DNA of 64,000 nt, taken from Salvelinus alpinus (lineage: Eukaryota; Chordata; Actinopteri; Salmoniformes; Salmonidae). Numbering within the stretch: position 1 is the first letter of the stretch; every line of letters begins with the position of its first letter. The notes beneath the pieces were generated by a model that was not told the DNA's origin, did not search any database, and saw only the letters and a program-made list of their open reading frames with translations. The position numbers were made by a program, and so were the translations under genes. Below are positions 6,783-61,217 of this stretch, piece after piece. Location of the stretch: NCBI RefSeq assembly GCF_045679555.1, contig NC_092096.1, positions 17,861,612 to 17,925,611 of the forward strand, in the 5' to 3' direction.

Positions 6783-7181
6783 TGTCACGCCCTGACCTTA
6801 GTTTTATATATTTTCTGTATTATTTTGGTCAGGGTGTGGCGAGGGTGGGTATGTGTGTTTTGTCTTGTCTAGGGTTTTTGTTTATCTACGGGGATTTCGT
6901 ATGTCTAGGTAATGTAGGTTTATGGTGGCCTGAATTGGTTCTCAATCAGAGGCAGCTGTTTATCGTTGTCTCTGATTGGGGATCCTATTTAGGTTGCCAT
7001 TTTCCATTTAGGTTTGGTGGGTTCTTGTCTATGTGGAGTTGCATGTCAGCACTCGATCTATTTAGCGTCACGGTCCTTTTTTTGTTACTTTGTTAGTTTG
7101 TTCAGTGTTCTTCCTTTATTAAAGAAAGAATGTATTCATATCACGCTGCGCCTTGGTCTCCTCAATGCGACGGACGTGACA
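6783..7181 (+). mobile_element. Solo LTR (399 bp), related to the LTR element at 52334
   Basis: It starts TGTCACGCCCTGACC and ends GGACGTGACA, so the ends form a short inverted repeat. Internal features shared with the LTRs at 52334 and 23672: CCCTGACC (6790-6797) complementary to GGTCAGGG (6827-6834); a second hairpin with arms 6941-6951 and 6970-6980; and an ATTAAAGA polyadenylation-like signal near 7120 followed by CACGCTGCGCC. Flanks are CATGG and CATTC, an imperfect match to a 5 bp duplication, so an old insertion is likely. A 140-codon open frame overlapping it is an accident of the LTR. Confidence 0.75.
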
Positions 7182-23502: not shown

Positions 23503-24218
23503 GGCAGACAGGCTCGAGGTCAAGTCAGGCAGAATGGTCAGGCAGGCGGGTACAGAGTCCAGAACAGGCAAGAGTCAAAACCGGGAGGACTAGAAAAAGG
23601 AGAAAAGGCAAAGCAGGAAAATGGGAAAAACTGCTGGTAGACTTGGACATACAAGACGAACTGGCACAGAGTGTCACGATCGTCTATGGGTGAGAGAGAG
23701 GACCAAGGCGCAGCGTGTGCAAAATACATTCTCCTTTAATTTGAGAAAGGAAAAAACACGAAACGAACACTGATAACAAACTAAACAAAAACAACAAACG
23801 ACCGTGAAGCTAACGACGTAGGTGCATACACAAGCAACAAACGTTCAACATAGACAATTACCCACAAAAACATGATGCCTATGGCTGCCTTAAATATGGC
23901 TCCCAATCAGAGACAAATGAAAGACATCTGTCTCTGATTGAGAACCACTCAGGCAACCATAGACTTACATAGACAACTACACTAGACACTACAAAAACAC
24001 ATACATACCCCATGTCACACCCTGACCTAACTAAAATAATAATGAAAACAAAGATAACTAAGGCCAGGGTGTGACACAGAGAGACAGGAAACACAGGGAT
24101 AAATACACTGGCACAGAGAGACAGGAAACACAGGGATAAATACACTGGGGAAAATAAGCGACACCTGGAGGGGGTGGAGACAATAACGAGGACAGGTGAA
24201 ACAGATCAGGGTGTGACA
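23503..24218 (-). mobile_element. Older LTR-related repeat interrupted by a solo LTR
   Basis: Sequence 23503-23671 (GGCAGGCGGGTACAGAGTCC, GAACTGGCACAGAG) continues after the solo LTR at 24077 with CAGAGAGACAGGAAACACAG and ends near 24218 with CAGATCAGGGTGTGACAC. Its end resembles the LTR terminus GGTGTGACA. A GGCACAGAGAGACAGGAAAC block is duplicated in tandem (about 24072-24148). I recognise it as a recurring salmonid repeat but cannot name the family. Confidence 0.55.
23672..24076 (-). mobile_element. Solo LTR (405 bp) with 5-bp target duplication
   Basis: The plus strand begins TGTCACGATCG and ends CCAGGGTGTGACA. The 5 bp CAGAG is present on both sides (23667-23671 and 24077-24081), which proves an insertion. 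In the sense (minus) strand the ends read TGTCACACCCTGGCC...CGTGACA. Two hairpins match those of the LTRs at 6783 and 52334: arms 24013-24027/24062-24076 and arms 23898-23913/23931-23946. The polyadenylation-like region lies near 23730-23745 on minus (ATTAAAGGAG). Confidence 0.88.
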
Positions 24219-27974: not shown

Positions 27975-30505
27975 TTTCTCAGCAGACCGTGTCTCTGTAA
28001 AGTCTCAGCAGACCGTGTCTCTGTAAAGTCTCAGCAGACCGTGTCACTGTAAAGTCTCAGCAGACGTGTCTCTGTAAAGTGTCAGCAGACCGTGTCTCTG
28101 TAAAGTCTCAGCAGACGTGTCTCTGTAAAGTCTCAGCAGACCGTGTCTCTGTAAAGTCTCAGCAGACCGTGTCACTGTAAAGTCTCAGCAGACGTGTCTC
28201 TGTAAAGTCTCAGCAGACCGTGTCTCTGTAAAGTCTCAGCAGACCGTGTCTCTGTAAAGTCTCAGCAGACCGTGTCACTGTAAAGTCTCAGCAGACCGTG
28301 TCTCTGTAAAGTCTCAGCAGACCATGTCTCTGTAAAGTCTCAGCAGACCGTGTCACTGTAAAGTCTCAGCAGACTGTGTCACTGTAAAGTCTCAGCAGAC
28401 TGTGTCACTGTAAAGTCTCAGCAGACCGTGTCTCTGTAAAGTCTCAGCAGACCGTGTCTCTGTAAAGTCTCAGCAGACCGTGTCTCTGTAAAGTCTCAGC
28501 AGACCGTGTCTCTGTAAAGTCTCAGCAGACCGTGTCTCTGTAAAGTCTCAGCAGACCGTGTCACTGTAAAGTCTCAGCAGACCGTGTCTCTGTAAAGTCT
28601 CAGCAGACCATGTCATTGTAAAGTCTCAGCAGACCGTGTCTCTGTAAAGTCTCAGCACACCGTGTCTCTGTAAAGTCTCAGCAGACCGTGTCACTGTAAA
28701 GTCTCAGCAGACCGTGTCATTGTAAAGTCTCAGCAGACCGTGTCACTGTAAAGTCTCAGCAGACCGTGTCTCTGTAAAGTCTCAGCAGACCGTGTCTCTG
28801 TAAAGTCTCAGCAGACCGTGTCATTGTAAAGTCTCAGCAGACCGTGTCTCTGTAAAGTCTCAGCAGACCGTGTCTCTGTAAAGTCTTAGCAGACCGTGTC
28901 ACTGTAAAGTCTTAGCAGACCGTGTCTCTGTAAAGTCTCAGCAGACCGTGTCACTGTAAAGTCTTAGCAGACCGTGTCACTGTAAAGTCTTAGCAGACCG
29001 TGTCTCTGTAAAGTCTCAGCAGACCGTGTCACTGTAAAGTCTCAGCAGACCGTGTCTCTGTAAAGTCTCAGCAGACCGTGTCACTGTAAAGTCTCAGCAG
29101 ACCGTGTCACTGTAAAGTCTCAGCAGACCGTGTCACTGTAAAGTCTCAGCAGACCGTGTCTCTGTAAAGTCTCAGCAGACCGTGTCTCTGTAAAGTCTCA
29201 GCAGACCGTGTCTCTGTAAAGTCTCAGCAGACCGTGTCACTGTAAAGTCTCAGCAGACCGTGTCACTGTAAAGTCTCAGCAGACCGTGTCACTGTAAAGT
29301 CTCAGCAGACCGTGTCACTGTAAAGTCTCAGCAGACCGTGTCTCTGTAAAGTCTCAGCAGACCGTGTCACTGTAAAGTCTCAGCAGACCGTGTCACTGTA
29401 AAGTCTCAGCAGACCGTGTCACTGTAAAGTCTCAGCACACCGTGTCTCTGTAAAGTCTCAGCAGACTGTGTCACTGTAAAGTCTCAGCAGACCGTGTCAT
29501 TGTAGTCTCAGCAGACCGTGTCACTGTAAAGTCTCAGCAGACCGTGTCTCTGTAAAGTCTTAGCAGACCGTGTCACTGTAAAGTCTTAGCAGACCGTGTC
29601 TCTGTAAAGTCTCAGCAGACCGTGTCACTGTAAAGTCTCAGCAGACCGTGTCTCTGTAAAGTCTCAGCAGACCGTGTCACTGTAAAGTCTCAGCAGACCG
29701 TGTCACTGTAAAGTCTCAGCAGACCGTGTCTCTGTAAAGTCTCAGCAGACCGTGTCACTGTAAAGTCTTAGCAGACCGTGTCACTGTAAAGTCTCAGCAG
29801 ACCGTGTCTCTGTAAAGTCTCAGCAGACCGTGTCTCTGTAAAGTCTCAGCAGACCGTGTCATTGTAAAGTCTTAGCAGACCGTGTCATTGTAAAGTCTTA
29901 GCAGACTGTGTCACTGTAAAGTCTCAGCAGACCGTGTCATTGTAAAGTCTTAGCAGACTGTGTCACTGTAAAGTCTCAGCAGACCGTGTCATTGTAAAGT
30001 CTTAGCAGACTGTGTCTCTGTAAAGTCTCAGCAGACCGTGTCATTGTAAAGTCTTAGCAGACCGTGTCATTGTAAAGTCTTAGCAGACTGTGTCACTGTA
30101 AAGTCTCAGCAGACCGTGTCATTGTAAAGTCTTAGCAGACTGTGTCACTGTAAAGTCTCAGCAGACCGTGTCTCTGTAAAGTCTCAGCAGACCGTGTCTC
30201 TGTAAAGTCTTAGCAGACCGTGTCACTGTAAAGTCTTAGCAGACTGTGTCACTGTAAAGTCTCAGCAGACCGTGTCACTGTAAAGTCTTAGCAGACCGTG
30301 TCTCTGTAAAGTCTCAGCAGACCGTGTCACTGTAAAGTCTCAGCAGACCGTGTCTCTGTAAAGTCTCAGCAGACCGTGTCATTGTAAAGTCTCAGCAGAC
30401 CGTGTCTCTGTAAAGTCTCAGCAGACCGTGTCTCTGTAAAGTCTCAGCAGACCGTGTCATTGTAAAGTCTCAGCAGACCGTGTCACTGTAAAGTCTCAGC
30501 AGACA
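27975..30505. repeat. 26-bp minisatellite, about 97 copies
   Basis: The unit contains GTCTCAGCAGACCGTGTCTC and TGTAAA. Variants TCTCTG/TCACTG/TCATTG and CTCAGC/CTTAGC mix along the array, with CTTAGC confined to after about 28880. One unit near 29505 has lost AAAG. Confidence 0.96.
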
Positions 30506-35287: not shown

Positions 35288-36842
35288 AATGTCATACCTG
35301 CTGCAGAATCAAAGGCTCTCTCCTGGTACTGTCATACCTGCTGCAGAATCAAAGGATCTCTCCTGGTACTGTCATACCTGCTGCAGAATCAAAGGATCTC
35401 TCCTGGTACTGTCATACCTGCTGCAGAATCAAAGGCTCTCTCCTGGTACTGTCATACCTGCTGCAGAATCAAAGGATCTCTCCTGGTACTGTCATACCTG
35501 CTGCAGAATCAAAGGCTCTCTCCTGGTACTGTCATACCTGCTGCAGAATCAAAGGATCTCTTCTGGTACTGTCATACCTGCTGCAGAATCAAAGGCTCTC
35601 TCCTGGTACTGTCATACCTGCTGCAGAATCAAAGGATCTCTCCTGGTACTAACAGTCATACCTGCTGCAGAATCAAAGGATCTCTCCTGGTACTAACAGT
35701 CATACCTGCTGCAGAATCAAAGGCTCTCTCCTGGTACTGTCATACCTGCTGCAGAATCAAAGGCTCTCTCCTGGTACTGTCATACCTGCTGCAGAATCAA
35801 AGGCTCTCTCCTGGTACTAACAGTCATACCTGCTGCAGAATCAAAGGCTCTCTCCTGGTACTAACAGTCATACCTGCTGCAGAATCAAAGGCTCTCTCCT
35901 GGTACTAACAGTCATACCTGCTGCAGAATCAAAGGATCTCTTCTGGTACTGTCATACCTGCTGCAGAATCAAAGGCTCTCTCCTGGTACTAACAGTCATA
36001 CCTGCTGCAGAATCAAAGGCTCTCTCCTGGTACTGTCATACCTGCTGCAGAATCAAAGGATCTCTCCTGGTACTAACAGTCATACCTGCTGCAGAATCAA
36101 AGGCTCTCTCCTGGTACTAACAGTCATACCTGCTGCAGAATCAAAGGATCTCTCCTGGTACAGTCATACCTGCTGCAGAATCAAAGGCTCTCTCCTGGTA
36201 CAGTCATACCTGCTGCAGAATCAAAGGCTCTCTCCTGGTACAGTCATACCTGCTGCAGAATCAAAGGATCTCTCCTGGTACTAACAGTCATACCTGCTGC
36301 AGAATCAAAGGATCTCTCCAGGTACTAACTGTCATACCTGCTGCAGAATCAAAGGATCTCTCCTGGTACTAACTGTCATACCTGCTGCAGAATCAAAGGA
36401 TCTCTCCTGGTACTAACAGTCATACCTGCTGCAGAATCAAAGGCTCTCTCCTGGTACTAACAGTCATACCTGCTGCAGAATCAAAGGTTCTCTCCTGGTA
36501 CAGTCATACCTGCTGCAGAATCAAAGGCTCTCTCCTGGTACTAACTATCATACCTGCTGCAGAATCAAAGGCTCTCTCCTGGTACTAACAGTCATACCTG
36601 CTGAAGAATCAAAGGCTCTCTCCTGGTACTAACTGTCATACCTGCTGCAGAATCAAAGGCTCTCTCCTGGTACTAACAGTCATACCTGCTGCAGAATCAA
36701 AGGATCTCTCCAAGTACTAACAGTCATACCTGCTGCAGAATCAAAGGATCTCTCCTGGTACTGTCATACCTGCTGCAGAATCAAAGGCTCTCTCCAGGTA
36801 CTAACTATCATACCTGCTGCAGAATCAAAGGCTCTCTCCTGG
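35288..36842. repeat. 40/44-bp minisatellite with two length classes
   Basis: About 37 copies with GTCATACCTGCTGCAGAATC and AAAGGCTCTCTCCTGGTACT. Units end in TACT (40 bp), TACTAACA (44 bp) or TACA. GGCTCT and GGATCT variants alternate. The 4 bp length difference shifts frames, so the open frames near the left end do not persist. Confidence 0.95.
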
Positions 36843-37825
36843 TATTCAGTGCCAAGCTATGTGCATTCTCCAAACTCACATTTGGTCCAGATGCTGCCGA
36901 GTTCTTTGTCGAGAGTAGTATTATGTCATAAAAGCAGGATGGTTTGGCAGGCCATACACATTTCAGCAGAATTTCCGTATTTGGATAAATGAGTCTATAC
37001 TTTTTTAGCAACAAGAGACCCTGTGATGTTAGGTCATAGCAGGTCTAGGAGTTACAATATCCAGGCAGAAATACTGTGGCTGTTGTCAATGATGCTTCAC
37101 TGACTCATAATAATGGAGCTGCTTCGTTCTCTCTTCTTCTGATGCACCGAAGTGGATAAGTGAATGTAGGCCTACTACGCCCTCTAGTGGTAGCCAGAGA
37201 GTTACAACGTTTGTCAGTGTCTTTTACCAAAGTGTACGCATGTCCTTATTCTCCTTACTGACACACAGGTATCGTACTTTTCCAAAGGCCCGACTTGAAA
37301 AGCCCGTCGTGCAGCACTTAGGTCCAACTGAAACTCAACCTTTTTCCTCGACGAATAACCACAATCATCTTTTACAATCCATGTATTCTTTTGTTGTTGA
37401 TTTTATTTGATCTTTGAGAAAAAATACAAAAGATACAAAATCCATCATACAAACATCAACTACATCACACCTTCCCAGACCCACTAGCTTCCCTTATCAC
37501 TTTCTTCCACATGGCCTCAAATTAAAATATAACTGAATGTCTATAACAATAGTATAACGAATGACCATGGACCAATGACTGTCACATATGAGGCAACATC
37601 GTACATAAATCATCACAAATGAAAATGTCTCTCGAGACGTCAGTAGTACGTCACTGATGTACATGTTTGTTCTACATACCACAGCTGGCTCTGTGTGAGT
37701 AAGTGGCTGGGAGTCACACTACAGGCAATGTGCAGGTTCTGTACAGGCACTGTGGGCTTTCAGCAACAACATGGATAGCAGCAGGTGCCACAGTAATGTA
37801 GTGTTTCATCCACCGGTCCAGTCCA
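36843..37825. other. No gene recognised
   Basis: Unique sequence. Open frames under 70 codons at 36808-37014 and 37497-37682 have no recognisable content. Confidence 0.4.
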
Positions 37826-40640: not shown

Positions 40641-43600
40641 CTGGGAAGGAGAGAAATAGGTGTTTCAAGTTTTGTTTTTAGAACTGACTGGTCAAAAACA
40701 CATTGATTTGACCTTTATTTGAACAGGAAGGGGTCAGGGGTTAAAGTATTTTAAAGGTTTGAACCTCTTTTCTGAGAGAGGCCCAGAAACGTTTTTATTT
40801 CAACTCTTTACATCTCAATTATAGAAATACAAATGATAGAACAAACATTTCAATTCAAAACAATGGCCCATGCCACATAGAGTTAGCACATATTTTTGCT
40901 CCCGCTCACCAATGAGACAGAGCACTACATTGGCCGCGCCGTACAGCTCCACCTCCCTGATCCAATTGGACACGGAGTCAAAGGTTCCGTGGCGTGTGAT
41001 GTCATAGGCGATCATGGCGCCGTGGGCGCTGCGGTAGTAACTATGGGTGATGGTCCGGAAACGCTCCTGTCCAGCCGTGTCCCATACCTGCATCTGTTTT
41101 ACACAGACACACACAGAATTAGATAAATATCTCACACACAAACACAATGATCTCACAGTCTAATATACTCCTGGAGGGCCCAATACAAAACAATGATCTC
41201 ACAGTCTAATATACTCCTGGAGGGAACAATACAAAACAATGATCTCACAGTCTAATATACTCCTGGAGGAGACAATACAAAACAATGATCTCACAGTCTA
41301 ATATACTCCTGGAGGGAACAATACAAAACAATGATCTCACAGTCTAATATACTCCTGGAGGGAACAATACAAAACAATGATCTCACAGTCTAATATACTC
41401 CTGGAGGGAACAATACAAAACAATGATCTCACAGTCTAATATACTCCTGGAGGAGACAATACAAAACAATGATCTCACAGTCTAATATACTCCTGGAGGG
41501 AACAATACAAAACAATGATCTTACAGTCTAATATACTCCTGGAGGGAACAATACAAAACAATGATCTCACAGTCTAATATACTCCTGGAGGAGACAATAC
41601 AAAACAATGATCTCACAGTCTAATATACTCCTGGAGAGAACAATACAAAACAATGATCTCACAGTCTAATATACTCCTGGAGGGAACAATACAAAACAAT
41701 GATCTCACAGTCTAATATACTCCTGGAGGGAACAATACAAAACAATGATCTTACAGTCTAATATACTCCTGGAGTGGCCAATACAAAACAATGATCTCAC
41801 AGTCTAATATACTCCTGGAGGGAACAATACAAAACAATGATCTCACAGTCTAATATACTCCTGGAGGGAACAATACAAAACAATGATCTCACAGTCTAAT
41901 ATACTCCTGGAGGAGACAATACAAAACAATGATCTTACAGTCTAATATACTCCTGGAGGAGACAATACAAAACAATGATCTCACAGTCTAATATACTCCT
42001 GGAGGGAACAATACAAAACAATGATCTCACAGTCTAATATACTCCTGGAGGAGACAATACAAAACAATGATCTCACAGTCTAATATACTCCTGGAGGGCC
42101 CAATACAAAACAATGATCTCACAGTCTAATATACTCCTGGAGGGAACAATACAAAACAATGATCTCACAGTCTAATATACTCCTGGAAGGAACAATACAA
42201 AACAATGATCTCACAGTCTAATATACTCCTGGAGGAGACAATACAAAACAATGATCTTACAGTCTAATATACTCCTGGAGTGGCCAATACAAAACAATGA
42301 TCTCACAGTCTAATATACTCCTGGAGGGTACAATACAAAACAATGATCTTACAGTCTAATATACTCCTGGAGGGAACAATACAAAACAATGATCTCACAG
42401 TCTAATATACTCCTGGAGGGAACAATACAAAACAATGACATCACAGTCTAATATACTCCTGGAGAGAACAATACAAAACAATGATCTTACAGTCTAATAT
42501 ACTCCTGGAGGGAACAATACAAAACAATGATCTCACAGTCTAATATACTCCTGGAGGGAACAATACAAAACAATGATCTCACAGTCTAATATACTCCTGG
42601 AGGGTACAATACAAAACAATGATCTTACAGTCTAATATACTCCTGGAGGGAACAATACAAAACAATGATCTCACAGTCTAATATACTCCTGGAGGGAACA
42701 ATACAAAACAATGACATCACAGTCTAATATACTCCTGGAGGGAACAATACAAAACAATGATCTTACAGTCTAATATACTCCTGGAGGGAACAATACAAAA
42801 CAATGATGATCTCACAGTCTAATATACTCCTGGAGGGAACAATACAAAACAATGATCTCACAGTCTAATATACTCCTGGAGGAGACAATACAAAACAATG
42901 ATCTCACAGTCTAATATACTCCTGGAAGGAACAATACAAAACAATGATCTCACAGTCTAATATACTCCTGGAGGAGACAATACAAAACAATGATCTTACA
43001 GTCTAATATACTCCTGGAGTGGCCAATACAAAACAATGATCTCACAGTCTAATATACTCCTGGAGGGTACAATACAAAACAATGATCTTACAGTCTAATA
43101 TACTCCTGGAGGGAACAATACAAAACAATGATCTCACAGTCTAATATACTCCTGGAGGGAACAATACAAAACAATGACATCACAGTCTAATATACTCCTG
43201 GAGAGAACAATACAAAACAATGATCTCACAGTCTAATATACTCCTGGAGGGAACAATACAAAACAATGATCTCACAGTCTAATATACTCCTGGAGGGAAC
43301 AATACAAAACAATGATCTCACAGTCTAATATACTCCTGGAGGGAACAATACAAAACAATGATCTCACAGTCTAATATACTCCTGGAGGGAACAATACAAA
43401 ACAATGATCTCACAGTCTAATATACTCCTGGAGGGAACAATACAAAACAATGACATCACAGTCTAATATACTCCTGGAGAGAACAATACAAAACAATGAT
43501 CTTACAGTCTAATATACTCCTGGAGGGAACAATACAAAACAATGATCTCACAGTCTAATATACTCCTGGAGGGAACAATACAAAACAATGATCTCACAGT

Positions 43601-46600
43601 CTAATATACTCCTGGAGGAGACAATACAAATCCTCTGACACCTTAACAAAATGATGATGTACTGTAAATGTTAAAAAAGGCTGCAATATGCCACTGTGTG
43701 TCTCAGGTATCTCCTTCAGCCTCCGCCTGATCTGCTCCTCTCTTCATGTTAGCATAGCAACAACTGCCATAGCAACCTGACACACCTGGCACCAGAGTTC
43801 CTAATCTCCCATGCTCACCTGGTCTTACCCTGCATTGGTTTCTTTATCACTCTCCTCACAGACTTTATCTTTGTCTTCCTCTAAAACCCCCGTTAACTCC
43901 TTTCATCTCTCTTTCTCCTAATCATCCACACAACATGTACACAAGCACAGGAGAACTTGTTGTTTTTTTATGCTTCCAAAAGCTACTGTAGGGATTTTCT
44001 CTGTTTTGATTCATATGTGCTGTAGTTCTAATGTAGTAAACATGTCTCTGCCACTGGCTTTGGGAGGGATAGCTTACATACAGTATGTGTGTAGTGATGC
44101 AAGGGGGATTTCCACTGGTTCCTGTTTTTAACAATGACACACCTCTATAGGACGGGAAGCAAAACACCTTGCAACACCATTTCTGCCTGGAGCAAGAGCA
44201 CTGCCTGGAGCAAGAGCACTGCCTGGAGCAAGAGCACTGCCTGGAGCAAGAGCACAGCCTGGAGCAAGAGCACTGCCTGGAGCAAGAGCACTGCCTGGAG
44301 CAAGAGCACTGCCTGGAGCAAGAGAACTGCCTGGAGCAAGAGCACTGCCTGGAGCAAGAGCACTGCTGTTGTCATGCAAAGTGACTAAAGAAATCATATC
44401 CATGTTCCTGTCAGTAAATAGAACTCTTTACAGCTGAATAATATCCATGTTCCTGCCAGTAAATAGAACTCTTTACAGCTGAATAATATCCATGTTCCTG
44501 TCAGTAAATAGAACTCTTTACAGCTGAATAATATCCATGTTCCTGTCAGTAAATAGAACTCTTTACAGATGAATAATATCCATGTTCCTGTCAGTAAATA
44601 GAACTCTTTACAGCTGAATAATATCCATGTTCCTGTCAGTAAATAGAACTCTTTACAGCAGAATAATATCCATGTTCCTGTCAGTAAATAGAACTCGTTA
44701 CAGCAGAATAATATCCATGTTCCTGTCAGTAAATAGAACTCGTTACAGCAGAATAATATCCATGTTCCTGTCAGTAAATAGAACTCTTTACAGCTGAATA
44801 ATATCCATGTTTCTGTCAGTAAATAGAACTCTTTACAGCGGAATAATGTCCATGTTCCTGTCAGTAAATAGAACTCTTTACAGCTGAATAATATCCATGT
44901 TCCTGTCAGTAAATAGAACTCTTTACAGCTGAATAATATCCATGTTCCTGTCAGTAAATAGAACTCTTTACAGCTGAATAATATCCATGTTCCTGTCAGT
45001 AAATAGAACTCTTTACAGCTGAATAATATCCATGTTCCTGTCAGTAAATAGAACTCTTTACAGCTGAATAATATCCATGTTCCTGTCAGTAAATAGAACT
45101 CTTTACAGCTGAATAATATCCATGTTCCTGTCAGTAAATAGAACTCTTTACAGCTGAATAATATCCATGTTCCTGTCAGTAAATAGAACTCTTTACAGCT
45201 GAATAATATCCATGTTCCTGTCAGTAAATAGAACTCTTTACAGCAGAATAATATCCATGTTCCTGTCAGTAAATATAACTCTTTATAGCAGAATAATATC
45301 CATGTTCCTGTCAGTAAATAGAACTCTTTACAGCTGAATAATATCCATGTTCCTGTCAGTAAATATAACTCTTTACAGCAGAATAATATCCATGTTCCTG
45401 TCAGTAAATAGAACTCTTTACAGCTGAATAATATCCATGTTCCTGTCAGTAAATAGAACTCTTTACAGCTGAATAATATCCATGTTCCTGTCAGTAAATA
45501 GAACTCTTTACAGCTGAATAATATCCATGTTCCTGTCAGTAAATAGAACTCTTTACAGCAGAATAATATCCATGTTCCTGTCAGTAAATAGAACTCGTTA
45601 CAGCAGAATAATATCCATGTTCCTGTCAGTAAATAGAACTCGTTACAGCAGAATAATATCCATGTTCCTGTCAGTAAATAGAACTCTTTACAGCTGAATA
45701 ATATCCATGTTCCTGTCAGTAAATAGAACTCTTTACAGCGGAATAATGTCCATGTTCCTGTCAGTAAATAGAACTCTTTACAGCTGAATAATATCCATGT
45801 TCCTGTCAGTAAATAGAACTCTTTACAGCTGAATAATATCCATGTTCCTGTCAGTAAATAGAACTCTTTACAGCTGAATAATATCCATGTTCCTGTCAGT
45901 AAATAGAACTCTTTACAGCTGAATAATATCCATGTTCCTGTCAGTAAATAGAACTCTTTACAGCTGAATAATATCCATGTTCCTGTCAGTAAATAGAACT
46001 CTTTACAGCAGAATAATATCCATGTTCCTGTCAGTAAATATAACTCTTTATAGCAGAATAATATCCATGTTCCTGTCAGTAAATAGAACTCTTTACAGCT
46101 GAATAATATCCATGTTCCTGTCAGTAAATAGAACTCTTTACAGCAGAATAATATCCATGTTCCTGTCAGTAAATAGAACTCTTTATAGCAGAATAATATC
46201 CATGTTCCTGTCAGTAAATAGAACTCTTTACAGCTGAATAATATCCATGTTCCTGTCAGTAAATAGAACTCTTTACAGCTGAATAATATCCATGTTCCTG
46301 TCAGTAAATAGAACTCTTTACAGCTGAATAATATCCATGTTCCTGTCAGTAAATAGAACTCTTTAACGCTGAATAATGTCCATGTTCCTGTCAGTAAATA
46401 GAACTCTTTACAGCTGAATAATGTCCATGTTCCTGTCAGTAAATATAACTCTTTACAGCTGAATAATATCCATGTTCCTGTCAGTAAATAGAACTCTTTA
46501 CAGCTGAATAATATCCATGTTCCTGTCAGTAAATAGAACTCTTTACAGCTGAATAATATCCATGTTCCTGTCAGTAAATAGAACTCTTTACAGCTGAATA

Positions 46601-48421
46601 ATGTCCATGTTCCTGTCAGTAAATAGTACAAGCAGTCTCAATAAATGCTGTTTACATTGATCTCTGTCTGTGTGGTTACAGTTGTCACAGGGAGTTGTGT
46701 GTGTGGTTACAGTTGTCACAGGGAGTTATGTGTGTGGTACAGGGAGAGCAACAATGGTCTAGTGTTGTCATCATGCATGATTTGCATACGTTCTGATGTG
46801 CGCTCAGTTGAGGCAACAAGGCCCTATTCACACAGAGTGGCCATAAACCAAATGGCACTCTATTCCCTATATAGTGCATTACTTTCGACCAGAGACATGG
46901 GCCCTGGTCAAAAGTAGTGCACTAGATAAGGAATAGGGTGCGCTCTGGGACAGAGCCCCAGACTGAGATACATTCTGAAGCCATCCACTTGTCTGCTCTT
47001 CCTTCCTTCCTGTGTCAAAGGTCAGTTGGTTGAGGATACGGCCAGTAACACAGAATGAAATAGAAGCCATTCTAGAATGAAGGAGGTATATGACACACAG
47101 TCGGCCCCTCTAGTAATAATGTACAGATACCACTCTTAAACAAAAAGGTGCTATCTACAACCCAACATGGTTATTTGGCTGTCCCCATAGAACCCTTTTT
47201 GCTTCTTTCCACAGAGGGTTCTACATGGAACCAAAAAGGGTTCTCCTACGGGGACAGTGGAAGAATACTTTTGTGACCCTTTATTCTAAGAGTGTTTCTC
47301 TGTGGTTGGTAAGAGGAAGAGAGCGCACCATAAATACCTTCCTGTCACCTCTCTTGTCTGGCAGGTTTGGGGAACAATACACTTAGCAGGTGTAGGTAGA
47401 GGAGGGAGGGAGGTGCCCTCCAGCTACACAATCATTTAAACCTAAAGTATCTCTAAAGTGTTTAAACCTACACTCTTACAAAAAAGGGTTCCAAAAGAGT
47501 TCTTCGGCTGACCCATAGGAGAACCCTTTTTGATTCCAGTTAGAACTGTTTTTGGCTCCAGGTAGAACCATCTGTAGAAAGGGTTCTACATGGAACACAA
47601 AAGCATTCTACATGCAACCAAAAAGCCTTTAAGGTTCTAGATAGCAAAACAAATGATAAGAGTGTAGCCAGCCCCTCATAGAGGTTTCCTATTCAAGCAT
47701 ACAGTAGTTTGACCTCAATAGGTACTTAAGGCTTACTCTCACTTTTCTCACTGAAGTTTTAAAAAAATACTGGTGTTTTTGGTCAGGGAAGAGAAAGAGG
47801 AATGACTGATGTGTTGTAGGAGAACCAGAAAGGCGAGTCCCTCATGAAATGCTGGTCCAACTTGTATTAAGTGTCAACTTAATTAAGGCCTGCAAAGCCT
47901 TCTTGGCAGTATCACAAGACAACAGCTGTATTTTACACCTACCACTCAAATGGTCTGGAAACTGAAGTATTCAGACAGCAACTAATCTGATCAGGAGGCA
48001 ACACTTTGACATTTCAGTTATACGTTATGTGTATAGTCAACAACAGAAGACGTGTTGTAGATGTTCAAACTATCAACAAATCACCAACTGCAACTCTGTT
48101 GCTATGCAACAGCTTGCTGGAGTGACAGTAGGGTTATGTTTAAGGCTGGCTTTCATTGAACCTTTTTACTTCTATAAGGCACCATCTCTTCTAAACGTTT
48201 GAGGCTGAATTCCTCACCTTAATTCTCTTGCCGTCGATGTCCACTGTCCGCACGGTGAAGTCCACTCCTATGGTGTTCTGTTGCCTCTCTGAAAACTGTC
48301 CTGACTTGAAGCTCTGGACCACGCAGGTCTTGCCCACATTAGAATCTCCAATCAGGATGATCTTGAACAGGAAATCAAAGGATTCGTCCTGCAGCTCTAC
48401 TCCTCCAGTTGGCTGCTGCAT
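40357..48421 (-). CDS. rab19: Rab GTPase, RAB19/RAB43-like, three coding exons (223 aa)
   Basis: A small GTPase that cycles between GTP- and GDP-bound forms and marks a vesicle-trafficking compartment. Coding exons: 48421-48218, 41093-40910 and 40640-40357. All junctions are GT/AG, and the phases (0 and 1) join into 223 residues. Motifs: P-loop GDSNVGKTC (25-33), switch I NTIGVDF with T50, [11 protein letters not shown] (72-82), NKSD (131-134) and ETSAK (160-164). The C-terminus KKTCC carries two cysteines for geranylgeranylation. The stretches [18 protein letters not shown] and LETSAKE favour RAB19 over RAB43; this is a judgement from memory. The length is normal for a Rab and no key residue is missing. 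The ATG at 48421 is the first in frame after a likely 5' UTR splice acceptor. Intron 1 (41094-48217) is mostly minisatellite; intron 2 is 269 bp. Confidence 0.92.
40910..41093 (-). CDS. rab19: rab19 coding exon 2
   Basis: 184 bases: 61 codons from MQVWDTAGQ to NVVLCLI plus the first base of a Gly codon. The acceptor is TGTAAAACAG and the donor GTGAGC. It encodes switch II and the central helices. Confidence 0.93.
41146..43629. repeat. 46-bp minisatellite in rab19 intron 1
   Basis: About 54 copies of a 46 bp unit with AATGATCTCACAGTCTAATA and TACTCCTGGAGGGAACAATA. The junction hexamer varies (GGGAAC, GGAGAC, GTGGCC, GGGTAC, GAGAAC, GGGCCC), as do CTCACAG/CTTACAG/CATCACAG. The order of variants repeats over about 16 units. 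The array starts about 50 bases upstream of the exon 2 acceptor. Confidence 0.96.
43630..44182. other. Rab intron 1, unique part
   Basis: Unique intronic sequence without repeats or exons that I recognise. Confidence 0.5.
44183..44367. repeat. 18-bp minisatellite in rab19 intron 1
   Basis: About ten copies of CTGCCTGGAGCAAGAGCA. The 18 bp period keeps all frames open on both strands (for example LEQEHC on plus, LAPGSA on minus). This is not coding. Confidence 0.95.
44396..46627. repeat. 45-bp minisatellite in rab19 intron 1
   Basis: About 49 copies of a 45 bp unit with CCATGTTCCTGTCAGTAAAT and AGAACTCTTTACAGCTGAAT. The minus strand, which is the sense strand of the Rab gene, is open for 745 codons with a 15-residue period (YLLTGTW, FSCKEF). 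This follows from a stop-free 45 bp unit and is not taken as a gene. Confidence 0.95.
46848..46950. mobile_element. Fold-back MITE, second copy
   Basis: CCAAATGGCACTCTATTCCC and GGAATAGGGTGCGCTCTGGGA form inverted arms around GACCAGAGACATGGGCCCTGG. It is the same family as 27615-27740 but more diverged. Confidence 0.8.
47131..47294. mobile_element. Fold-back MITE with CACTCTTA ends, copy 1
   Basis: Ends CACTCTTAAAC and TCTAAGAGTG. Internal inverted blocks GGTTCTACATGGAACC, CTGTCCCCATAGAACCC and GGGTTCTCCTACGGGGACAG allow a long hairpin. Confidence 0.8.
47470..47665. mobile_element. Fold-back MITE with CACTCTTA ends, copy 2
   Basis: Ends ACACTCTTACAAA and ATAAGAGTGT. It holds AGGGTTCCAAAAGAGTTCTT, GACCCATAGGAGAACCC and AGGGTTCTACATGGAA blocks like copy 1, 175 bases away in the same intron. 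Confidence 0.8.
47666..48217. other. Rab intron 1, 5' part
   Basis: Unique intronic sequence up to the donor at 48217; nothing else recognised. Confidence 0.5.
48218..48421 (-). CDS. rab19: rab19 coding exon 1
   Basis: 68 codons from [11 protein letters not shown] to DIDGKRIK, followed by the donor GTGAGG. It encodes the N-terminus, the P-loop and switch I. Upstream on minus, GGCTCCCAG and GGACAG are possible acceptors for a noncoding first exon. A longer reading from TTG at 48463 has no ATG and is not used. Confidence 0.92.
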
Positions 48422-52108: not shown

Positions 52109-52333
52109 GAGGAGAGAGCAGACGGAAAAAACAAAGGCAGAAAATTAAATGAGGATGGGGAGAGGACAAAGGTCATTGGAGGAAATGCCATTTTTGTCCA
52201 AGTCTGATTGTGACTTCCTGTGATAATGGCAAAGTAATTTTGGTAATACAGTTGGGTTAAGTAAACAAAATATATATTTTTAAGAGATGTTGGTTGTCGA
52301 ATAAAGGAATATAATCTTAAAAGACGCTTCTCC

Positions 52334-52826
52334 TGTAACAGTCCTGACCTGTTTTATGTTGTTTTTATGTGTTTATGGTCAGGGCATGTGTTTTGGGTGG
52401 GCAGTCTATGTTATTCGTTTCTATGTTGGTTTTGGTTTGCCTGGTATGGCTCTTGATTAGAGGCAGGTGGTTTGCGTTTTTCTCTAATCAAGAGTCATAT
52501 TTAGGTAGGGCATTCTCACTGTTTGTTTGTGGGTGATTGTCTCCTGTGTCGTCGAATGTATGTACCATACGGGACTGTTTGGCTGTTCGTTTATTTCGAT
52601 GTCGTCCGTCTCCTGTACGTAAGTTTATGTTTAGTTATGTAAGTTTATGTTCAGGTTTCGTTCAACGTCGTTTTCTTGTTTTGTAGTTTGAAAGTGTTTT
52701 GTTTCGTTTCGTGTTGCCATCATCGTTATTAAATAAAGATGGCTTATTTCCCAAAGCCTGCGTTTTGGTCTGAGGATCCTTCTCTCCTCACCTCATCCGA
52801 GGATGAGGAGAGCGACAGCCGTTACA
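52334..52826 (+). repeat. 5' LTR
   Basis: Contains hairpin 1 (CCTGACC 52343-52349 / GGTCAGG 52377-52383), hairpin 2 (arms 52446-52462 and 52482-52498, 17 pairs including one G-U), a duplicated GTAAGTTTATGTT block (near 52618 and 52639), the polyadenylation signal AATAAA at 52732-52737 and, one base later, the ATG of the long ORF. The last 88 bases encode the ORF's N-terminus. Confidence 0.92.
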
Positions 52827-55150
52827 GAATCACCCACCAACACGCTAAGACCAAGCGGCAAGGGAAAACGAAACGGAGTAAGGGACAGGAGAGAAAGGAG
52901 CAATGGACATGGGACGATGTTTTGGATGGAAAGGGTTGCTACACTTGGGAGGAGATCCTGGCTGGGAGGGATCGCCTCCCATGGGAACAGGTGGAGGCAT
53001 TGAGGAGAGCAGAGGCTACCTGGGAGAGGAACCGGAGCTATGAGGGAACGCGTCTGGCACGGAAGCCGAAAAAGCCCGTAAGTAATTCCCAAAAATTTCT
53101 TGGGGGGGGGCTAGGAGATAGTGGGCCAAGGGCAGGTAGGAGACCTGCGCCCACTTCCCAGGCTTACCGTGGAGAGCGGGAGTACGGGCAGGCGCCGTGT
53201 TACGCAATAGAGCGCACGGTGTCTCCTGTACGAGTGCATAGCCCGGTGCGGGTTATTCCACCTCCCCGCACTGGGAGGGCTAGATTGGGTATTGAGCCAG
53301 GTGTCATGAGGCCGGCTCAACGCGTCTGGTCTCCAGTGCGTCTCCTCGGGCCGGCATACATGGCACCGGCCTTACGCATGGTTTCTCCGGTTCGCCTACA
53401 TAGGCCGGTGCGGGTTATTCCACCTCCCCGCACTGGTCGGGCAACCGGGAGCATTCAACCAGGTAAGGTTGGGCAAGCTCAATGCTCAAGAGTGCCAGTA
53501 CGCCTCCACGGTCCGGTATTTCCGGCACCACCTCCCCGCCCCAGCCTAGTACCTACAGTGTCTACACTACGCACTAGGCTACCAGTGCGTATCCTGAGCC
53601 CTGTTCCTCCTCCACGCACTCTCCCTGTAGTGCGTGTATCTAGCCCGGTGCCGCCAGTTCCGGGTCCACGCACTAAGCTACCTGTGCGTCTCCAGAGCCC
53701 TGAACCCACTGTATCTTCTCCCCCTACTAATCCTGATGTGCTTGTCCTCAGCCCGGCGTCACCAGTGCCGGTACCACGCATCAGGGATAGAGTAGGCTTT
53801 GAGAATACAGTGTGCCCTGTCCCTGCTCCCCGCACTAGTAGGGAGGTGCTTATCATTAGCACGGTGCCTCCAGTTCCGGCACCACGCACCAGGTCTACAG
53901 TGCGCCGTATCCGGCTAGAGCCATCCGTCTCCCCAGCGCCATCTGAGCCATCCGTCTCCCCAGCGCCATCTGAGCCATCCGTCTCCCCAGCGCCGTCTGA
54001 GCCATCCGTCTGCCATGAGCCTGCAAAGCCGCCCGTCTGCCATGAGCCTACAGAGCCGTCAGCCAGACAGGAGCCGCTAGAGCCATCAGCCAGACAGGAG
54101 CCGCTAGAGCCGTCAGCCAGACAGGATCTGCCAGAGCCGCCAACCAGACAGGATCTGCCAGAGCCGCCAACCAGACAGGATCTGCCAGAGCCGCCAACCA
54201 GACAGGATCTGCCAGAGCCGCCAACCAGACAGGATCTGCCAGAGCCGCCAACCAGACAGGATCTGCCAGAGCCGCCAACCAGACAGGATCTGCCAGAGCC
54301 GCCAACCAGACAGGATCTGCCAGAGCCGCCAACCAGACAGGATCTGCCAGAGCCGCCAACCAGACAGGATCTGCCAGAGCCGCCAGCGAGCCATGAGCAG
54401 CCAGAGCCGTCAGAGCGCCATGAGCAGCCAGAGCCGTCAGAGCGCCATGAGCAGCCAGAGCCGTCAGAGCGCCATGAGCAGCCAGAGCCGTCAGAGCGCC
54501 ATGAGCGTCGAGAGCCGTCAGCCTGCCATGAGCGTCGAGAGCCGTCAGCCTGCCATGAGCGTCGAGAGCCGTCAGCCTGCCATGAGCGTCGAGAGCCGTC
54601 AGCCTGCCATGAGCGTCGAGAGCCGTCAGCCTGCCATGAGCGTCGAGAGCCGTCAGCCTGCCATGAGCGTCGAGAGCCGTCAGCCTGCCATGAGCGTCGA
54701 GAGCCGTCAGCCTGCCATGAGCGTCGAGAGCCGTCAGCCTGCCATGAGCGTCGAGAGTCGTCAGTCAGCCATGAGCTGCCCTTCAGCCTGAAAAGGCTAG
54801 ATACCCAGAACTGCCCATCAGTCCAGAGCTGTCTCTCTGTCCGGAGCTGCCTTTCAGTCCGGAGTTGCCCCTCTATCCTGATCTCCCTCTCTATCTTTAT
54901 CTACTTCTATATTCTTATCTATCCCTCTGTCTTGATTTATCTCTCTGTCCCGGTGTTGTCCTTATTAGATATGTTGTTAAGGGGATTTTGTGGGGGTCAA
55001 AAGAGGGTGGACATTCTTGGAGGGAGGAAGTTAGGATGGACTATGGTGGTATGGGGACAGCGTCCTGAGCCGGAACCACCACCGTGGTCAACTGCCCACC
55101 CGGACCCTCCCCTGGACTTTGTGCTTGTGCGCCCGGCGTGCGCATCTTGA
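52739..55150 (+). CDS. 803-aa proline-rich repeat protein of the LTR element
   Basis: The only ORF of the element, from an ATG inside the 5' LTR to a TGA touching the purine tract. Residues 1-29 are acidic (SSEDEESDS). 30-60 are basic (KTKRQGKTKRSKGQ). About 57-105 is Trp-rich and predicted helical (WTWDDVL, YTWEEILAGR, LPWEQVEALRRAEATWERN). About 150-400 is Pro/Arg/Val-rich with SPVRV, PPPRTGRA and VPAPRT motifs. About 400-665 holds 9-residue repeats: EPSVSPAPS (3), EPPTRQDLP (about 9), EPSERHEQP (4), EPSACHERR (9). A Leu/Ile/Ser-rich stretch (ILISLSIFIYFYILIY) could span a membrane. The last 30 residues are Pro-rich. No zinc knuckle or enzyme motif is visible. A gag-like role is conceivable but unproven; I recognise no characterised homologue. 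Confidence 0.65.
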   Translation: MAYFPKPAFWSEDPSLLTSSEDEESDSRYRITHQHAKTKRQGKTKRSKGQERKEQWTWDDVLDGKGCYTWEEILAGRDRLPWEQVEALRRAEATWERNRSYEGTRLARKPKKPVSNSQKFLGGGLGDSGPRAGRRPAPTSQAYRGEREYGQAPCYAIERTVSPVRVHSPVRVIPPPRTGRARLGIEPGVMRPAQRVWSPVRLLGPAYMAPALRMVSPVRLHRPVRVIPPPRTGRATGSIQPGKVGQAQCSRVPVRLHGPVFPAPPPRPSLVPTVSTLRTRLPVRILSPVPPPRTLPVVRVSSPVPPVPGPRTKLPVRLQSPEPTVSSPPTNPDVLVLSPASPVPVPRIRDRVGFENTVCPVPAPRTSREVLIISTVPPVPAPRTRSTVRRIRLEPSVSPAPSEPSVSPAPSEPSVSPAPSEPSVCHEPAKPPVCHEPTEPSARQEPLEPSARQEPLEPSARQDLPEPPTRQDLPEPPTRQDLPEPPTRQDLPEPPTRQDLPEPPTRQDLPEPPTRQDLPEPPTRQDLPEPPTRQDLPEPPTRQDLPEPPASHEQPEPSERHEQPEPSERHEQPEPSERHEQPEPSERHERREPSACHERREPSACHERREPSACHERREPSACHERREPSACHERREPSACHERREPSACHERREPSACHERREPSACHERRESSVSHELPFSLKRLDTQNCPSVQSCLSVRSCLSVRSCPSILISLSIFIYFYILIYPSVLIYLSVPVLSLLDMLLRGFCGGQKRVDILGGRKLGWTMVVWGQRPEPEPPPWSTAHPDPPLDFVLVRPACAS
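54115..54770 (+). repeat. 27-bp tandem repeats inside the LTR-element ORF
   Basis: Three successive 27 bp families: AGACAGGATCTGCCAGAGCC type (54115-54385), CATGAGCAGCCAGAGCCGTC type (54392-54500) and CATGAGCGTCGAGAGCCGTC type (54500-54760). All lengths are multiples of three, so the frame is kept through expansion. The minus strand is also open across the first family. Confidence 0.93.
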
Positions 55151-55161
55151 GGGGGGGGTAC

Positions 55162-55654
55162 TGTAACAGTCCTGACCTGTTTTATGTTGTTTTTATGTGT
55201 TTATGGTCAGGGCATGTGTTTTGGGTGGGCAGTCTATGTTATTCGTTTCTATGTTGGTTTTGGTTTGCCTGGTATGGCTCTTGATTAGAGGCAGGTGGTT
55301 TGCGTTTTTCTCTAATCAAGAGTCATATTTAGGTAGGGCATTCTCACTGTTTGTTTGTGGGTGATTGTCTCCTGTGTCGTCGAATGTATGTACCATACGG
55401 GACTGTTTGGCTGTTCGTTTATTTCGATGTCGTCCGTCTCCTGTACGTAAGTTTATGTTTAGTTATGTAAGTTTATGTTCAGGTTTCGTTCAACGTCGTT
55501 TTCTTGTTTTGTAGTTTGAAAGTGTTTTGTTTCGTTTCGTGTTGCCATCATCGTTATTAAATAAAGATGGCTTATTTCCCAAAGCCTGCGTTTTGGTCTG
55601 AGGATCCTTCTCTCCTCACCTCATCCGAGGATGAGGAGAGCGACAGCCGTTACA
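55162..55654 (+). repeat. 3' LTR
   Basis: Reads the same as the 5' LTR throughout in my comparison, including AATAAA at 55560-55565. Transcripts of the element would end after this signal. The LTR-encoded reading frame here runs without a stop past the LTR end into the host open segment (55655-55855). Confidence 0.92.
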
Positions 55655-55667
55655 TCTCCCTTTATTC

Positions 55668-58960: not shown

Positions 58961-59371
58961 GTCTATAAATTACATATTTTCAAATTTCATTCAGAACCAA
59001 AAATGTCCCCGATTTCAACATACGGAAAATACACATTTTCAACATCTGTAAAATACGTATTTTAAACTTTCATTCACTCGTCTTTTAGACGTCATTTTGC
59101 TTACTGGGTCTATTCTAGTTTTGCGGGGGTGGCATTTTTTGGTCTTGAATATGGCGGCAGAGCCCTAGTTAAATAGTAGAGAAATACATACCCATAATGC
59201 TGCATGGGCTACTAATATTCCTATTTCCAGGCTGATGACATAGCTCTCAACAGAGATCAGAATGAGAAGACATGGCTGGAAAGGAACAATTAAGAGTTTG
59301 TCATTTTGTGTGAAAGACAAGAGTTTACAGCTCTGTATTACATCAGAACTGGAACATATAGCTGTTTATTG
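58961..59371. other. No gene recognised
   Basis: AT-rich. AACATACGGAAAATACACAT and AACATCTGTAAAATACGTAT form an imperfect duplication near 59015-59055. Confidence 0.4.
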
Positions 59372-61217
59372 TATCAATGAGTCCTGTACAAGTCATCTCT
59401 GTGGACCCAACTAGAATTATGACACAGTATCAATGAGTCCTGTACAAGTCATCTCTGTGGACCCAACTAGAATTATGACACAGTATCAATGAGTCCTGTA
59501 CAAGTCATCTCTGTGGACCCAACTAGAATTATGACACAGTATCAATGAGTCCTGTACAAGTCATCTCTGTGGACCCAACTAGAATTATGACACAGTATCA
59601 ATGAGTCCTGTACAAGTCATCTCTGTGGACCCAACTAGAATTATGACACAGTATCAATGAGTCCTGTACAAGTCATCTCTGTGGACCCAACTAGAATTAT
59701 GACACAGTATCAATGAGTCCTGTACAAGTCATCTCTGTGGACCCAACTAGAATTATGACACAGTATCAATGAGTCCTGTACAAGTCATCTCTGTGGACCC
59801 AACTAGAATTATGACACAGTATCAATGAGTCCTGTACAAGTCATCTCTGTGGACCCAACTAGAATTATGACACAGTATCAATGAGTCCTGTACAAGTCAT
59901 CTCTGTGGACCCAACTAGAATTATGACACAGTATCAATGAGTCCTGTACAAGTCATCTCTGTGGACCCAACTAGAATTATGACACAGTATCAATGAGTCC
60001 TGTACAAGTCATCTCTGTGGACCCAACTAGAATTATGACACAGTATCAATGAGTCCTGTACAAGTCATCTCTGTGGACCCAACTAGAATTATGACACAGT
60101 ATCAATGAGTCCTGTACAAGTCATCTCTGTGGACCCAACTAGAATTATGACACAGTATCAATGAGTCCTGTACAAGTCATCTCTGTGGACCCAACTAGAA
60201 TTATGACACAGTATCAATGAGTCCTGTACAAGTCATCTCTGTGGACCCAACTAGAATTATGACACAGTATCAATGAGTCCTGTACAAGTCATCTCTGTGG
60301 ACCCAACTAGAATTATGACACAGTATCAATGAGTCCTGTACAAGTCATCTCTGTGGACCCAACTAGAATTATGACACAGTATCAATGAGTCCTGTACAAG
60401 TCATCTCTGTGGACCCAACTAGAATTATGACACAGTATCAATGAGTCCTGTACAAGTCATCTCTGTGGACCCAACTAGAATTATGACACAGTATCAATGA
60501 GTCCTGTACAAGTCATCTCTGTGGACCCAACTAGAATTATGACACAGTATCAATGAGTCCTGTACAAGTCATCTCTGTGGACCCAACTAGAATTATGACA
60601 CAGTATCAATGAGTCCTGTACAAGTCATCTCTGTGGACCCAACTAGAATTATGACACAGTATCAATGAGTCCTGTACAAGTCATCTCTGTGGACCCAACT
60701 AGAATTATGACACAGTATCAATGAGTCCTGTACAAGTCATCTCTGTGGACCCAACTAGAATTATGACACAGTATCAATGAGTCCTGTACAAGTCATCTCT
60801 GTGGACCCAACTAGAATTATGACACAGTATCAATGAGTCCTGTACAAGTCATCTCTGTGGACCCAACTAGAATTATGACACAGTATCAATGAGTCCTGTA
60901 CAAGTCATCGCTGTGGACCCAACTAGAATTATGACACAGTATCAATGAGTCCTGTACAAGTCATCGCTGTGGACCCAACTAGAATTATGACACAGTATCA
61001 ATGAGTCCTGTACAAGTCATCGCTGTGGACCCAACTAGAATTATGACACAGTATCAATGAGTCCTGTACAAGTCATCTCTGTGGACCCAACTAGAATTAT
61101 GACACAGTATCAATGAGTCCTGTACAAGTCATCTCTGTGGACCCAACTAGAATTATGACACAGTATCAATGAGTCCTGTACAAGTCATCTCTGTGGACCC
61201 AACTAGAATTATGACAT
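59372..61217. repeat. 56-bp minisatellite, almost perfectly homogeneous
   Basis: 33 copies of a 56 bp unit containing ATCAATGAGTCCTGTACAAG and TCATCTCTGTGGACCCAACT. I see only one substitution type: CATCTCTG becomes CATCGCTG in three successive copies near 60908, 60964 and 61020. Confidence 0.97.

What the first reader, a model, noticed from the sequence alone, without database searches (positions are those of the whole stretch)
52334..55654. Young LTR element whose only ORF fills the whole internal region
Seen directly: two 493 bp LTRs without a visible difference, a TCTCC target duplication, a purine tract, and an 803-codon ORF that starts in the 5' LTR and whose stop codon touches the purine tract. 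No protease, RT, RNase H or integrase is present. Known non-autonomous LTR elements (TRIM, LARD) usually lack a long conserved ORF, and gag-only types normally start after the LTR. An element that keeps one long frame, partly written in its own LTR, suggests the protein is under selection and useful to the element, perhaps as a particle or RNA-binding protein used with a helper.
Basis: partly seen in the sequence, partly recalled or inferred. Interest (0 to 1): 0.85.

Follow-up and report, generated by a model that had tools for sequence, protein, structure and literature searches.

The report
Short retrotransposon keeping one unknown protein
A recently inserted jumping element without copying enzymes belongs to a long-lived family in this genome that has kept one unfamiliar proline-rich protein readable from inside its own end repeat, which suggests a parasite that borrows enzymes but brings a protein of its own.

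Summary
The host genome was searchable. Of 20 LTR-to-LTR intervals chosen by LTR similarity, 15 carry the ORF from the LTR start codon to a stop 11 nt before the 3' LTR (674-860 aa). The frame recurs in a relative family whose LTR is only about 69% alike. Deep comparisons give dN/dS 0.38-0.56 against 0.82-0.85 for simulated neutral change; shallow ones are mostly near neutral. Indels shared between copies are multiples of three in the ORF (4 of 4), not in the LTR (1 of 11). The primer site is complementary to, and covaries with, a segment inside the LTR, as in self-primed Tf1/sushi elements; sushi elements in the same genome share this, the purine tract and the LTR ends. No enzyme-bearing element with this LTR was found (capped searches), and the ORF resembles neither Gag nor any Pfam family. 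Best reading: an old lineage of sushi-dependent satellite retrotransposons encoding a selected, disordered proline-rich protein. Protein function and helper are inferred.

The parts
52329..52333 (+). left target-site duplication TCTCC
52334..52826 (+). 5' LTR, 493 nt, TGTAAC...GTTACA
   Evidence: identical to the 3' LTR
52498..52503 (+). TATTTA box 31 nt upstream of the self-primer segment (promoter role inferred)
   Evidence: similar place in the two relative solo LTRs, by eye
52529..52538 (+). self-primer segment GTGGGTGATT, predicted 5' end of the RNA (start of R)
   Evidence: 10 of 10 pairs with the primer site; covaries in a relative family
52732..52737 (+). AATAAA, poly(A) signal (used in the 3' LTR copy, inferred)
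52739..55150 (+). 803-codon ORF from an ATG in the LTR to a TGA at the purine tract
   Evidence: complete in 15 of 20 intervals
52739..52826 (+). LTR-encoded first 29 codons (acidic)
   Evidence: similar open peptide at the end of two relative solo LTRs, read by eye
52828..52837 (+). primer-binding site AATCACCCAC, 1 nt after the LTR
52827..53200 (+). N part: basic, with W-rich motif; exists as alternative modules in different copies
53201..53917 (+). middle part: Pro/Arg/Val-rich, pI 12; the part best conserved with the relative family
   Evidence: 90% aa identity over 108 aa with L064
53918..54779 (+). 27-nt (9-codon) tandem array, acidic; differs between copies
54780..55038 (+). hydrophobic repeat tail; replaced by a different hydrophobic repeat tail in the same frame in other copies
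55039..55161 (+). strongly conserved 3' end of the internal region including the stop and purine tract
   Evidence: with 60 nt of LTR, at least 40 places listed at 100% over 183-184 nt (the best 40 of 2000 candidates were scored); 97.6-100% over 126 nt in 8 copies
55149..55158 (+). purine tract GAGGGGGGGG, then TAC
   Evidence: same form and TAC in sushi elements
55162..55654 (+). 3' LTR, 493 nt
55655..55659 (+). right target-site duplication TCTCC
23672..24074 (-). solo LTR of a relative family (flanks CTCTG on both sides), with GTGGGTAATT and an open LTR peptide
   Evidence: (ends and flanks by eye)
6783..7181 (+). second, older relative solo LTR with an open LTR peptide (flanks differ)
   Evidence: (by eye)

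Best explanation
This is a young member of an old, abundant lineage of non-autonomous LTR retrotransposons that replicate by the Tf1/sushi self-priming route. SHOWN from sequence: the primer site next to the 5' LTR is complementary to a segment inside the LTR and covaries with it; the LTR ends, 5-bp duplication and purine tract have the same form as in sushi elements of the same genome; no enzyme domain was found in the copies scanned, and internal regions are only 1964-2544 nt; one long frame starting in the LTR is kept by selection across diverged families. INFERRED: the RNA starts at that LTR segment, reads through the first poly(A) signal, is translated from the LTR ATG, is packaged, reverse-transcribed and integrated by Gag-Pol of co-resident sushi elements, and its own protein (basic proline/arginine-rich front half, acidic repeat array, hydrophobic end, disordered) helps its own RNA into or through that process, most likely as an RNA-binding assembly partner. 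Self-priming and selection on the frame are the firmest steps (about 0.9 each), the sushi helper about 0.75, the RNA-binding role about 0.35.
For: Structure: identical LTRs, TSD; 19 of 20 intervals have TTGAGGGGGGGGTAC before the 3' LTR; 18 of 18 single elements have matching 5-bp flanks, and the triple-LTR L029 has them at its outer ends; internal lengths 1964-2544. Self-priming: 10-nt complement in the window and in 19 of 19 fetched intervals; at least 10 nt occurs by chance at 48 of 8514 control places; one relative element (C17) has GTGGGTAATT in its LTR and AATTATCCAC as primer site (9 Watson-Crick pairs plus one G-U), a second (C13) has AATTACCCAC, the exact complement of GTGGGTAATT, although its own LTR segment was not read; 9 of 9 sushi elements examined, of 24 loci fetched, have an 11-nt match next to the LTR. 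Sushi element L042 carries Gag, protease, RT, RNase H, integrase zinc domain, SH3_Tf2-1 and chromodomain; the integrase core match in the piece given is just under its cut-off. Selection: dN/dS 0.38-0.56 in six deep pairs against neutral medians of 0.82-0.85; 0, 0, 0, 13, 1 and 0 of 500 simulations reach the observed value. Inherited indels: multiples of three in 4 of 4 (ORF) against 1 of 11 (LTR), Fisher p 0.004. Frame: 15 of 20 intervals complete. Composition: middle part pI 12.0, array pI 5.0, tail hydrophobic.
Against: Shallow pairs are mostly near neutral: of six three are 0.75-0.79, and L026-L028 is 1.27. Five of 20 intervals are damaged. L063, a more distant relative, has two stops. Six upstream ATGs lie between the predicted RNA start and the ORF ATG. 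The N part predicts as disordered (mean pLDDT 53.6), so no fold supports a function. No helper sharing this LTR was found, so use of sushi machinery rests on shared signals only. No transcript or peptide evidence was available. Recombination between lineages complicates pairwise dN/dS.
Confidence: 0.65

Rival explanations
1. The frame is kept for the RNA, not for the protein: an uninterrupted frame running from the LTR to just before the 3' LTR leaves only a short 3' untranslated end, protecting the RNA from decay of prematurely stopped messages, and in-frame repeats expand harmlessly. The protein itself does nothing.
For: Stop codon 11 nt before the 3' LTR in 15 of 15 complete copies; the tail is replaced by an unrelated but open repeat in some copies; shallow dN/dS mostly near neutral; no recognised domain in the N and middle parts.
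Against: Deep dN/dS clearly below neutral, and 90% amino-acid identity over 108 residues of the middle part with a relative family, point to constraint on amino acids.
Confidence: 0.2
2. It is a deletion product of an autonomous element and the ORF is a worn Gag, i.e. an animal counterpart of the plant TR-GAG type.
For: Position, basic charge and single ORF fit Gag; TR-GAGs exist and move in plants (PMC8704663, passages). Two same-strand pairs of relative LTRs 6.6 kb (C17) and 7.4 kb (C19) apart were not read and could be longer elements.
Confidence: 0.1
3. A neutral accident: the element is young, so copies are simply not yet broken, and the repeats make a long frame likely.
For: Fifteen of 20 intervals have LTR pairs without any difference and one more has only a gap; the array stays open by its period.
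Against: The frame is shared with lineages differing at 22-35% of aligned nucleotides, where simulated neutral change leaves no stop in at most 27 of 500 runs (the stop columns of L063 were left out beforehand); inherited indels are all multiples of three.
Confidence: 0.05

Closest known systems
Tf1/sushi group of Ty3/gypsy LTR retrotransposons (self-primed chromoviruses)
   Same: Primer site complementary to a segment in the LTR, 5-bp duplication, TGTNAC...GTNACA ends and GAGGGGGGG(G)TAC before the 3' LTR as in sushi elements of this genome. Tf1: first 11 bases of the RNA complementary to the primer site (PMC7175516, passages).
   Different: No Gag, protease, RT, RNase H, integrase or chromodomain match; complement is 10 nt, not 11; the LTR has no match inside the sushi elements of 24 loci.
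TR-GAG (terminal-repeat retrotransposons with Gag domain, plants)
   Same: Two LTRs, a single ORF, no enzymes, recent copies (PMC8704663, passages).
   Different: The ORF has no detectable Gag similarity, begins in the LTR, and is partly tandem repeat; not a plant.
LARD and TRIM
   Same: Non-autonomous LTR elements mobilised in trans (definitions recalled).
   Different: These lack a conserved long ORF (recalled); here an ORF is kept by selection.
BARE-2 / BARE-1 and similar parasite-helper pairs
   Same: Non-autonomous element thought to use a relative's proteins (mentioned in PMC8704663, passage).
   Different: Here no helper with the same LTR was found, and the protein kept is not similar to the sushi Gag.

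Membership tests
LTR retrotransposon | paired LTRs, TG...CA ends, target duplication, purine tract | tested here: met
Tf1/sushi self-primed group | primer site complementary to the RNA 5' end (in the LTR) | tested here: met
   sequence complement in 20 of 20 intervals and covariation in a relative family; the RNA 5' end itself was not mapped
Tf1/sushi self-primed group | RT/integrase of the sushi clade | tested here: not met
   no enzyme domain in the window ORF or in L015; sushi-type in mechanism only, not a clade member by RT
TR-GAG | single ORF encoding a Gag domain | tested here: not met
TRIM | very short element without coding capacity (recalled) | tested here: not met
   3321 nt with an 803-codon ORF
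LARD | large internal region without a conserved ORF (recalled) | tested here: not met
   selected ORF
Endogenous retrovirus | gag-pol-env with tRNA primer site (recalled) | tested here: not met
   no such genes matched; the sequence after the LTR does not begin with TGG

The most novel reading that the evidence does not exclude
A satellite retrotransposon: a lineage that gave up, or never had, its own enzymes and Gag but evolved or captured a different structural/RNA-binding protein, encoded from within its own LTR across the primer site, which lets its RNA compete for sushi particles, much as satellite viruses carry a coat protein but borrow a polymerase. The protein's modules and C-terminal repeats are exchanged between lineages while the LTR start, frame and 3' end are kept.
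Probability: 0.3. Interest if true: 0.8.

Novelty: new variant of a known kind. Interest (0 to 1): 0.6.

Why it matters
Non-autonomous LTR elements are usually treated as passive RNAs. Here a large family in one genome (first-look candidates 3568 for the LTR and 15727 for the N-terminal protein, of which 40 and 150 were scored) carries an unknown protein with signs of purifying selection. That makes a question testable: can a parasite of a retrotransposon succeed by encoding a protein of its own? The self-priming signals also persist, and covary, in elements without RT. It might explain some proline-rich predicted proteins in such genomes as transposon products (that such predictions exist in salmonids is recalled, not checked).

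Tried and rejected
Viral, bacterial, phage and plasmid collections gave no relative: LTR pattern 0 matches in viral contigs; 6 matches of a 17-mer in genome contigs, taken as chance and not read; no match in phages or plasmids; 4 short-pattern matches in viral contigs not followed up; protein query without a confirmed relative. Canonical tRNA primer site: rejected, no TGG at the LTR edge. Autonomous partner with the same LTR: not found among the best 40 LTR places, the best places of the two relative LTR families, 24 loci found by sushi Gag (0 of 24 contain either primer segment or primer site) or 8 found by SH3_Tf2-1 (0 of 8 contain GTGGGTGATT). Structure search: dropped because the model is poor. 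Frameshift in the window's tail: considered because the 18-nt repeats read well in another frame; two unrelated tails end in the same frame and C-terminus, so not upheld. The Cornifin match of L015 is taken as a low-complexity repeat match. Papers: no hit for salmonid with 'non-autonomous LTR retrotransposon' or with proline-rich/ORF/LTR terms; sequence strings gave two unrelated papers (listing).

Rows dropped: L016 and L017 (no complete LTR pair) from all counts of 20; L013, L015, L018 (ambiguous alignment) and both L029 intervals (near-duplicates of L028) from the shared-indel count; L029 from the counts of variable columns; alignment columns with a stop from the dN/dS of L063.
Full report
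Observation. The reported anatomy is exact. The LTRs at 52334-52826 and 55162-55654 are 493 nt and identical, with TCTCC on both outer sides. The ORF runs from 52739 to the TGA at 55148-55150, eleven nucleotides before the 3' LTR. No Pfam family matches the ORF or its N and middle parts. Zero differences in 493 nt bound the divergence of the LTR pair at about 0.006 per site (0.003 per lineage); with a rate of the order of 1e-8 per site and year (recalled) the insertion is younger than roughly 0.3 million years. Part of the ORF length is cheap: 53918-54779 is a 27-nt tandem array, open in its frame because of its period.

Family. The host genome (2.37 Gb, 928 contigs, unnamed) could be searched. 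The LTR has 3568 first-look candidates; the 40 scored ones include 19 neighbouring same-strand pairs whose starts lie 2.46-3.05 kb apart. I fetched 20 loci chosen by LTR similarity, not by ORF. Two (L016, L017) have no complete LTR pair; 18 loci give 19 intervals (L029 is a triple-LTR tandem), and with the window 20. Fifteen of 20 keep the whole frame from an ATG near the LTR end to a stop 11 nt before the 3' LTR, with 674 to 860 codons. In 14 of the 15 the ATG is 88 nt before the LTR end; in L015 it lies elsewhere and the first codons read differently. Five are damaged: L013, L018 and L027 have 10, 8 and 8 G in a run that has 9 in the window and in 11 of 11 complete copies checked; L025 has a one-base deletion near base 100 of the ORF; L014 has one extra A in its 5' LTR only, which puts the start ATG out of frame, while the rest of its frame is open over 804 codons. 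Homopolymer errors of the assembly cannot be excluded. The N-terminal protein search gave 15727 candidates; of the 150 scored, 132 lie in frames of at least 680 codons and 3 have a stop inside the match. That list favours intact copies.

Mosaic history. Among eight copies compared with the window, LTRs are 95.7-98.0% alike without gaps, the first 460 internal nucleotides 80.8-97.6%, and the last 126 internal nucleotides 97.6-100%. The last 123 internal nucleotides plus 60 of the LTR are listed at 100% at 40 places; only the best 40 of 2000 candidates were scored, so this says that at least 40 copies are identical there. The N part occurs as different modules, and the hydrophobic tail in two unrelated repeat forms that end in the same frame and C-terminus. 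I read this as exchange between lineages, presumably by template switching, with the two ends held constant; constraint on the 3' end as a cis signal is also possible.

Selection on the frame. In deep comparisons (182-315 codons, dS 0.40-0.74) dN/dS is 0.50 (window-L063), 0.38 (L015-L063), 0.43 (window-L064), 0.56 (L021-L064), 0.42 (L063-L064) and 0.42 (window-L015). Simulations that place the same substitutions at random give medians of 0.82-0.85, and 0, 0, 0, 13, 1 and 0 of 500 reach the observed values; the other two forward frames give 1.04-1.59. An earlier alignment gave 0.49 for window-L015 and 0.50 for L012-L015, 0 of 500 each. One antisense frame is also low there (0.59 and 0.64), as expected when third positions coincide. 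Of six shallow pairs with the window, L021, L026 and L028 are 0.75-0.79 (181, 182 and 120 of 500 simulations as low), L012 0.62 (69), L019 0.56 (28) and L011 0.36 (2); between L026 and L028 the value is 1.27 and between L021 and L028 0.91. So selection shows at depth, not between close copies. Indels shared by at least two copies are multiples of three in 4 of 4 cases in the ORF and 1 of 11 in the non-coding LTR (Fisher p 0.004), leaving out L013, L015, L018 and L029.

Depth of the lineage. The window holds two solo LTRs about 68-69% identical to this LTR over some 120 nt. Both end in an open peptide from an ATG at the corresponding place (read by eye). The family of one of them includes 4 pairs 1.6-2.7 kb apart, and one same-strand pair 7.4 kb apart that was not read. 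The start of the internal region of one such element (L064) carries the same frame, open over its 186 codons, in phase across the LTR end and primer site, with 90% identity over 108 residues of the middle part. A third form (L063) has it at 60% identity over 324 residues with two stops. A fourth lies beside a sushi copy in L049 (53% over 101 residues).

Priming. The primer site 1 nt after the LTR (AATCACCCAC) is the exact complement of GTGGGTGATT at LTR position 196, 31 nt after a TATTTA box. At least 10 nt of complement occurs at 48 of 8514 control places. All 19 fetched intervals agree. In a relative element on C17 the LTR has GTGGGTAATT (L065) and the primer site is AATTATCCAC (L064), ten pairs with one G-U; another on C13 has AATTACCCAC (L066), the exact complement of GTGGGTAATT, but its own LTR segment was not read because L067 stops short. 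Against the window this is a two-sided change. Nine of nine sushi elements examined, of 24 loci fetched, show an 11-nt match at the same offset (for L051 the LTR end was set one base off). [quoted passage not shown] The RNA start here is therefore predicted at 52529; it was not measured.

Helper. The genome holds many sushi elements: 3997 first-look Gag candidates (150 scored) and 6194 SH3_Tf2-1 candidates (150 scored). L042 matches Gag, protease, RT, RNase H, integrase zinc-binding, SH3 and chromodomain families by pieces, the integrase core just under its cut-off. Sushi ends are TGTCAC...GTGACA with GAGGGGGGG(G)TAC before the 3' LTR where both were resolved, the same plan as here. None of 24 Gag loci contains this primer pair, and the only LTR similarity among them lies outside the sushi element, in L049; 0 of 8 SH3 loci contain GTGGGTGATT. 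So sushi Gag-Pol is the likely helper by mechanism, not by demonstrated pairing.

Protein. The front is acidic where the LTR encodes it, then basic (pI 10.2), then Pro/Arg-rich (pI 12.0, charge +30), then an acidic array (pI 5.0), then a hydrophobic tail. The next methionine after the start is residue 190, so the N part depends on the LTR ATG unless a non-AUG start is used. The N part predicts as disordered with one weak helix; N plus middle part has no profile similarity to the sushi Gag, from thin alignments. An RNA-binding assembly partner is my preferred role (about 0.35); protection of the RNA by translation is the main rival.

Novelty. Plant TR-GAGs are the nearest described type (PMC8704663, passages), but their ORF is Gag. 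I found no description of this lineage in the searches (listings; passages of PMC9025612); repeat databases could not be consulted, and the family may well be catalogued there without its ORF being discussed.

Noticed in passing
window 20696-23037, 27977-30504, 35291-36844, 41138-43630, 44392-46626, 59371-61216: The window is crowded with long minisatellite arrays (units of 26-56 nt in those named, up to about 97 copies); the array at 59371-61216 has 99% matching copies.
   Followed up: no
L029 (C2:58025564-58032060); also C1:105337367-105342599: Tandem multimers: L029 is LTR-internal-LTR-internal-LTR with identical LTRs and matching outer flanks; on C1 three LTR-end/primer sites lie 2.6 kb apart (not read).
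   Followed up: partly
window 55039-55221 and 40 places in G000: The 3' end of the internal region plus the first 60 nt of the LTR is identical at at least 40 places although the rest of the element differs by several percent.
   Followed up: partly
window 52619-52644 and 52686: Two GTAAGT splice-donor-like sites in the LTR after the predicted RNA start, followed by a pyrimidine-rich stretch ending in TTTGTAG; splicing here would remove some of the six upstream ATGs (seen by eye).
   Followed up: no
G000 C17:27941463-27948518 and C19:25045917-25053817: Pairs of relative LTRs 6.6 and 7.4 kb apart in the same orientation, possible longer elements of this lineage.
   Followed up: no
L042 1931-6622: The sushi element's single frame extends back into its own LTR (first ATG 331 nt before the LTR end), with a second in-frame ATG 18 nt after the LTR.
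   Followed up: partly
L049 1610-1678 and 7280-9041: A sushi copy is flanked by pieces of a relative of this element, with primer-site-like GAACTACCCACC and the same ORF frame (53% over 101 aa); it looks like a sushi insertion into that relative.
   Followed up: partly
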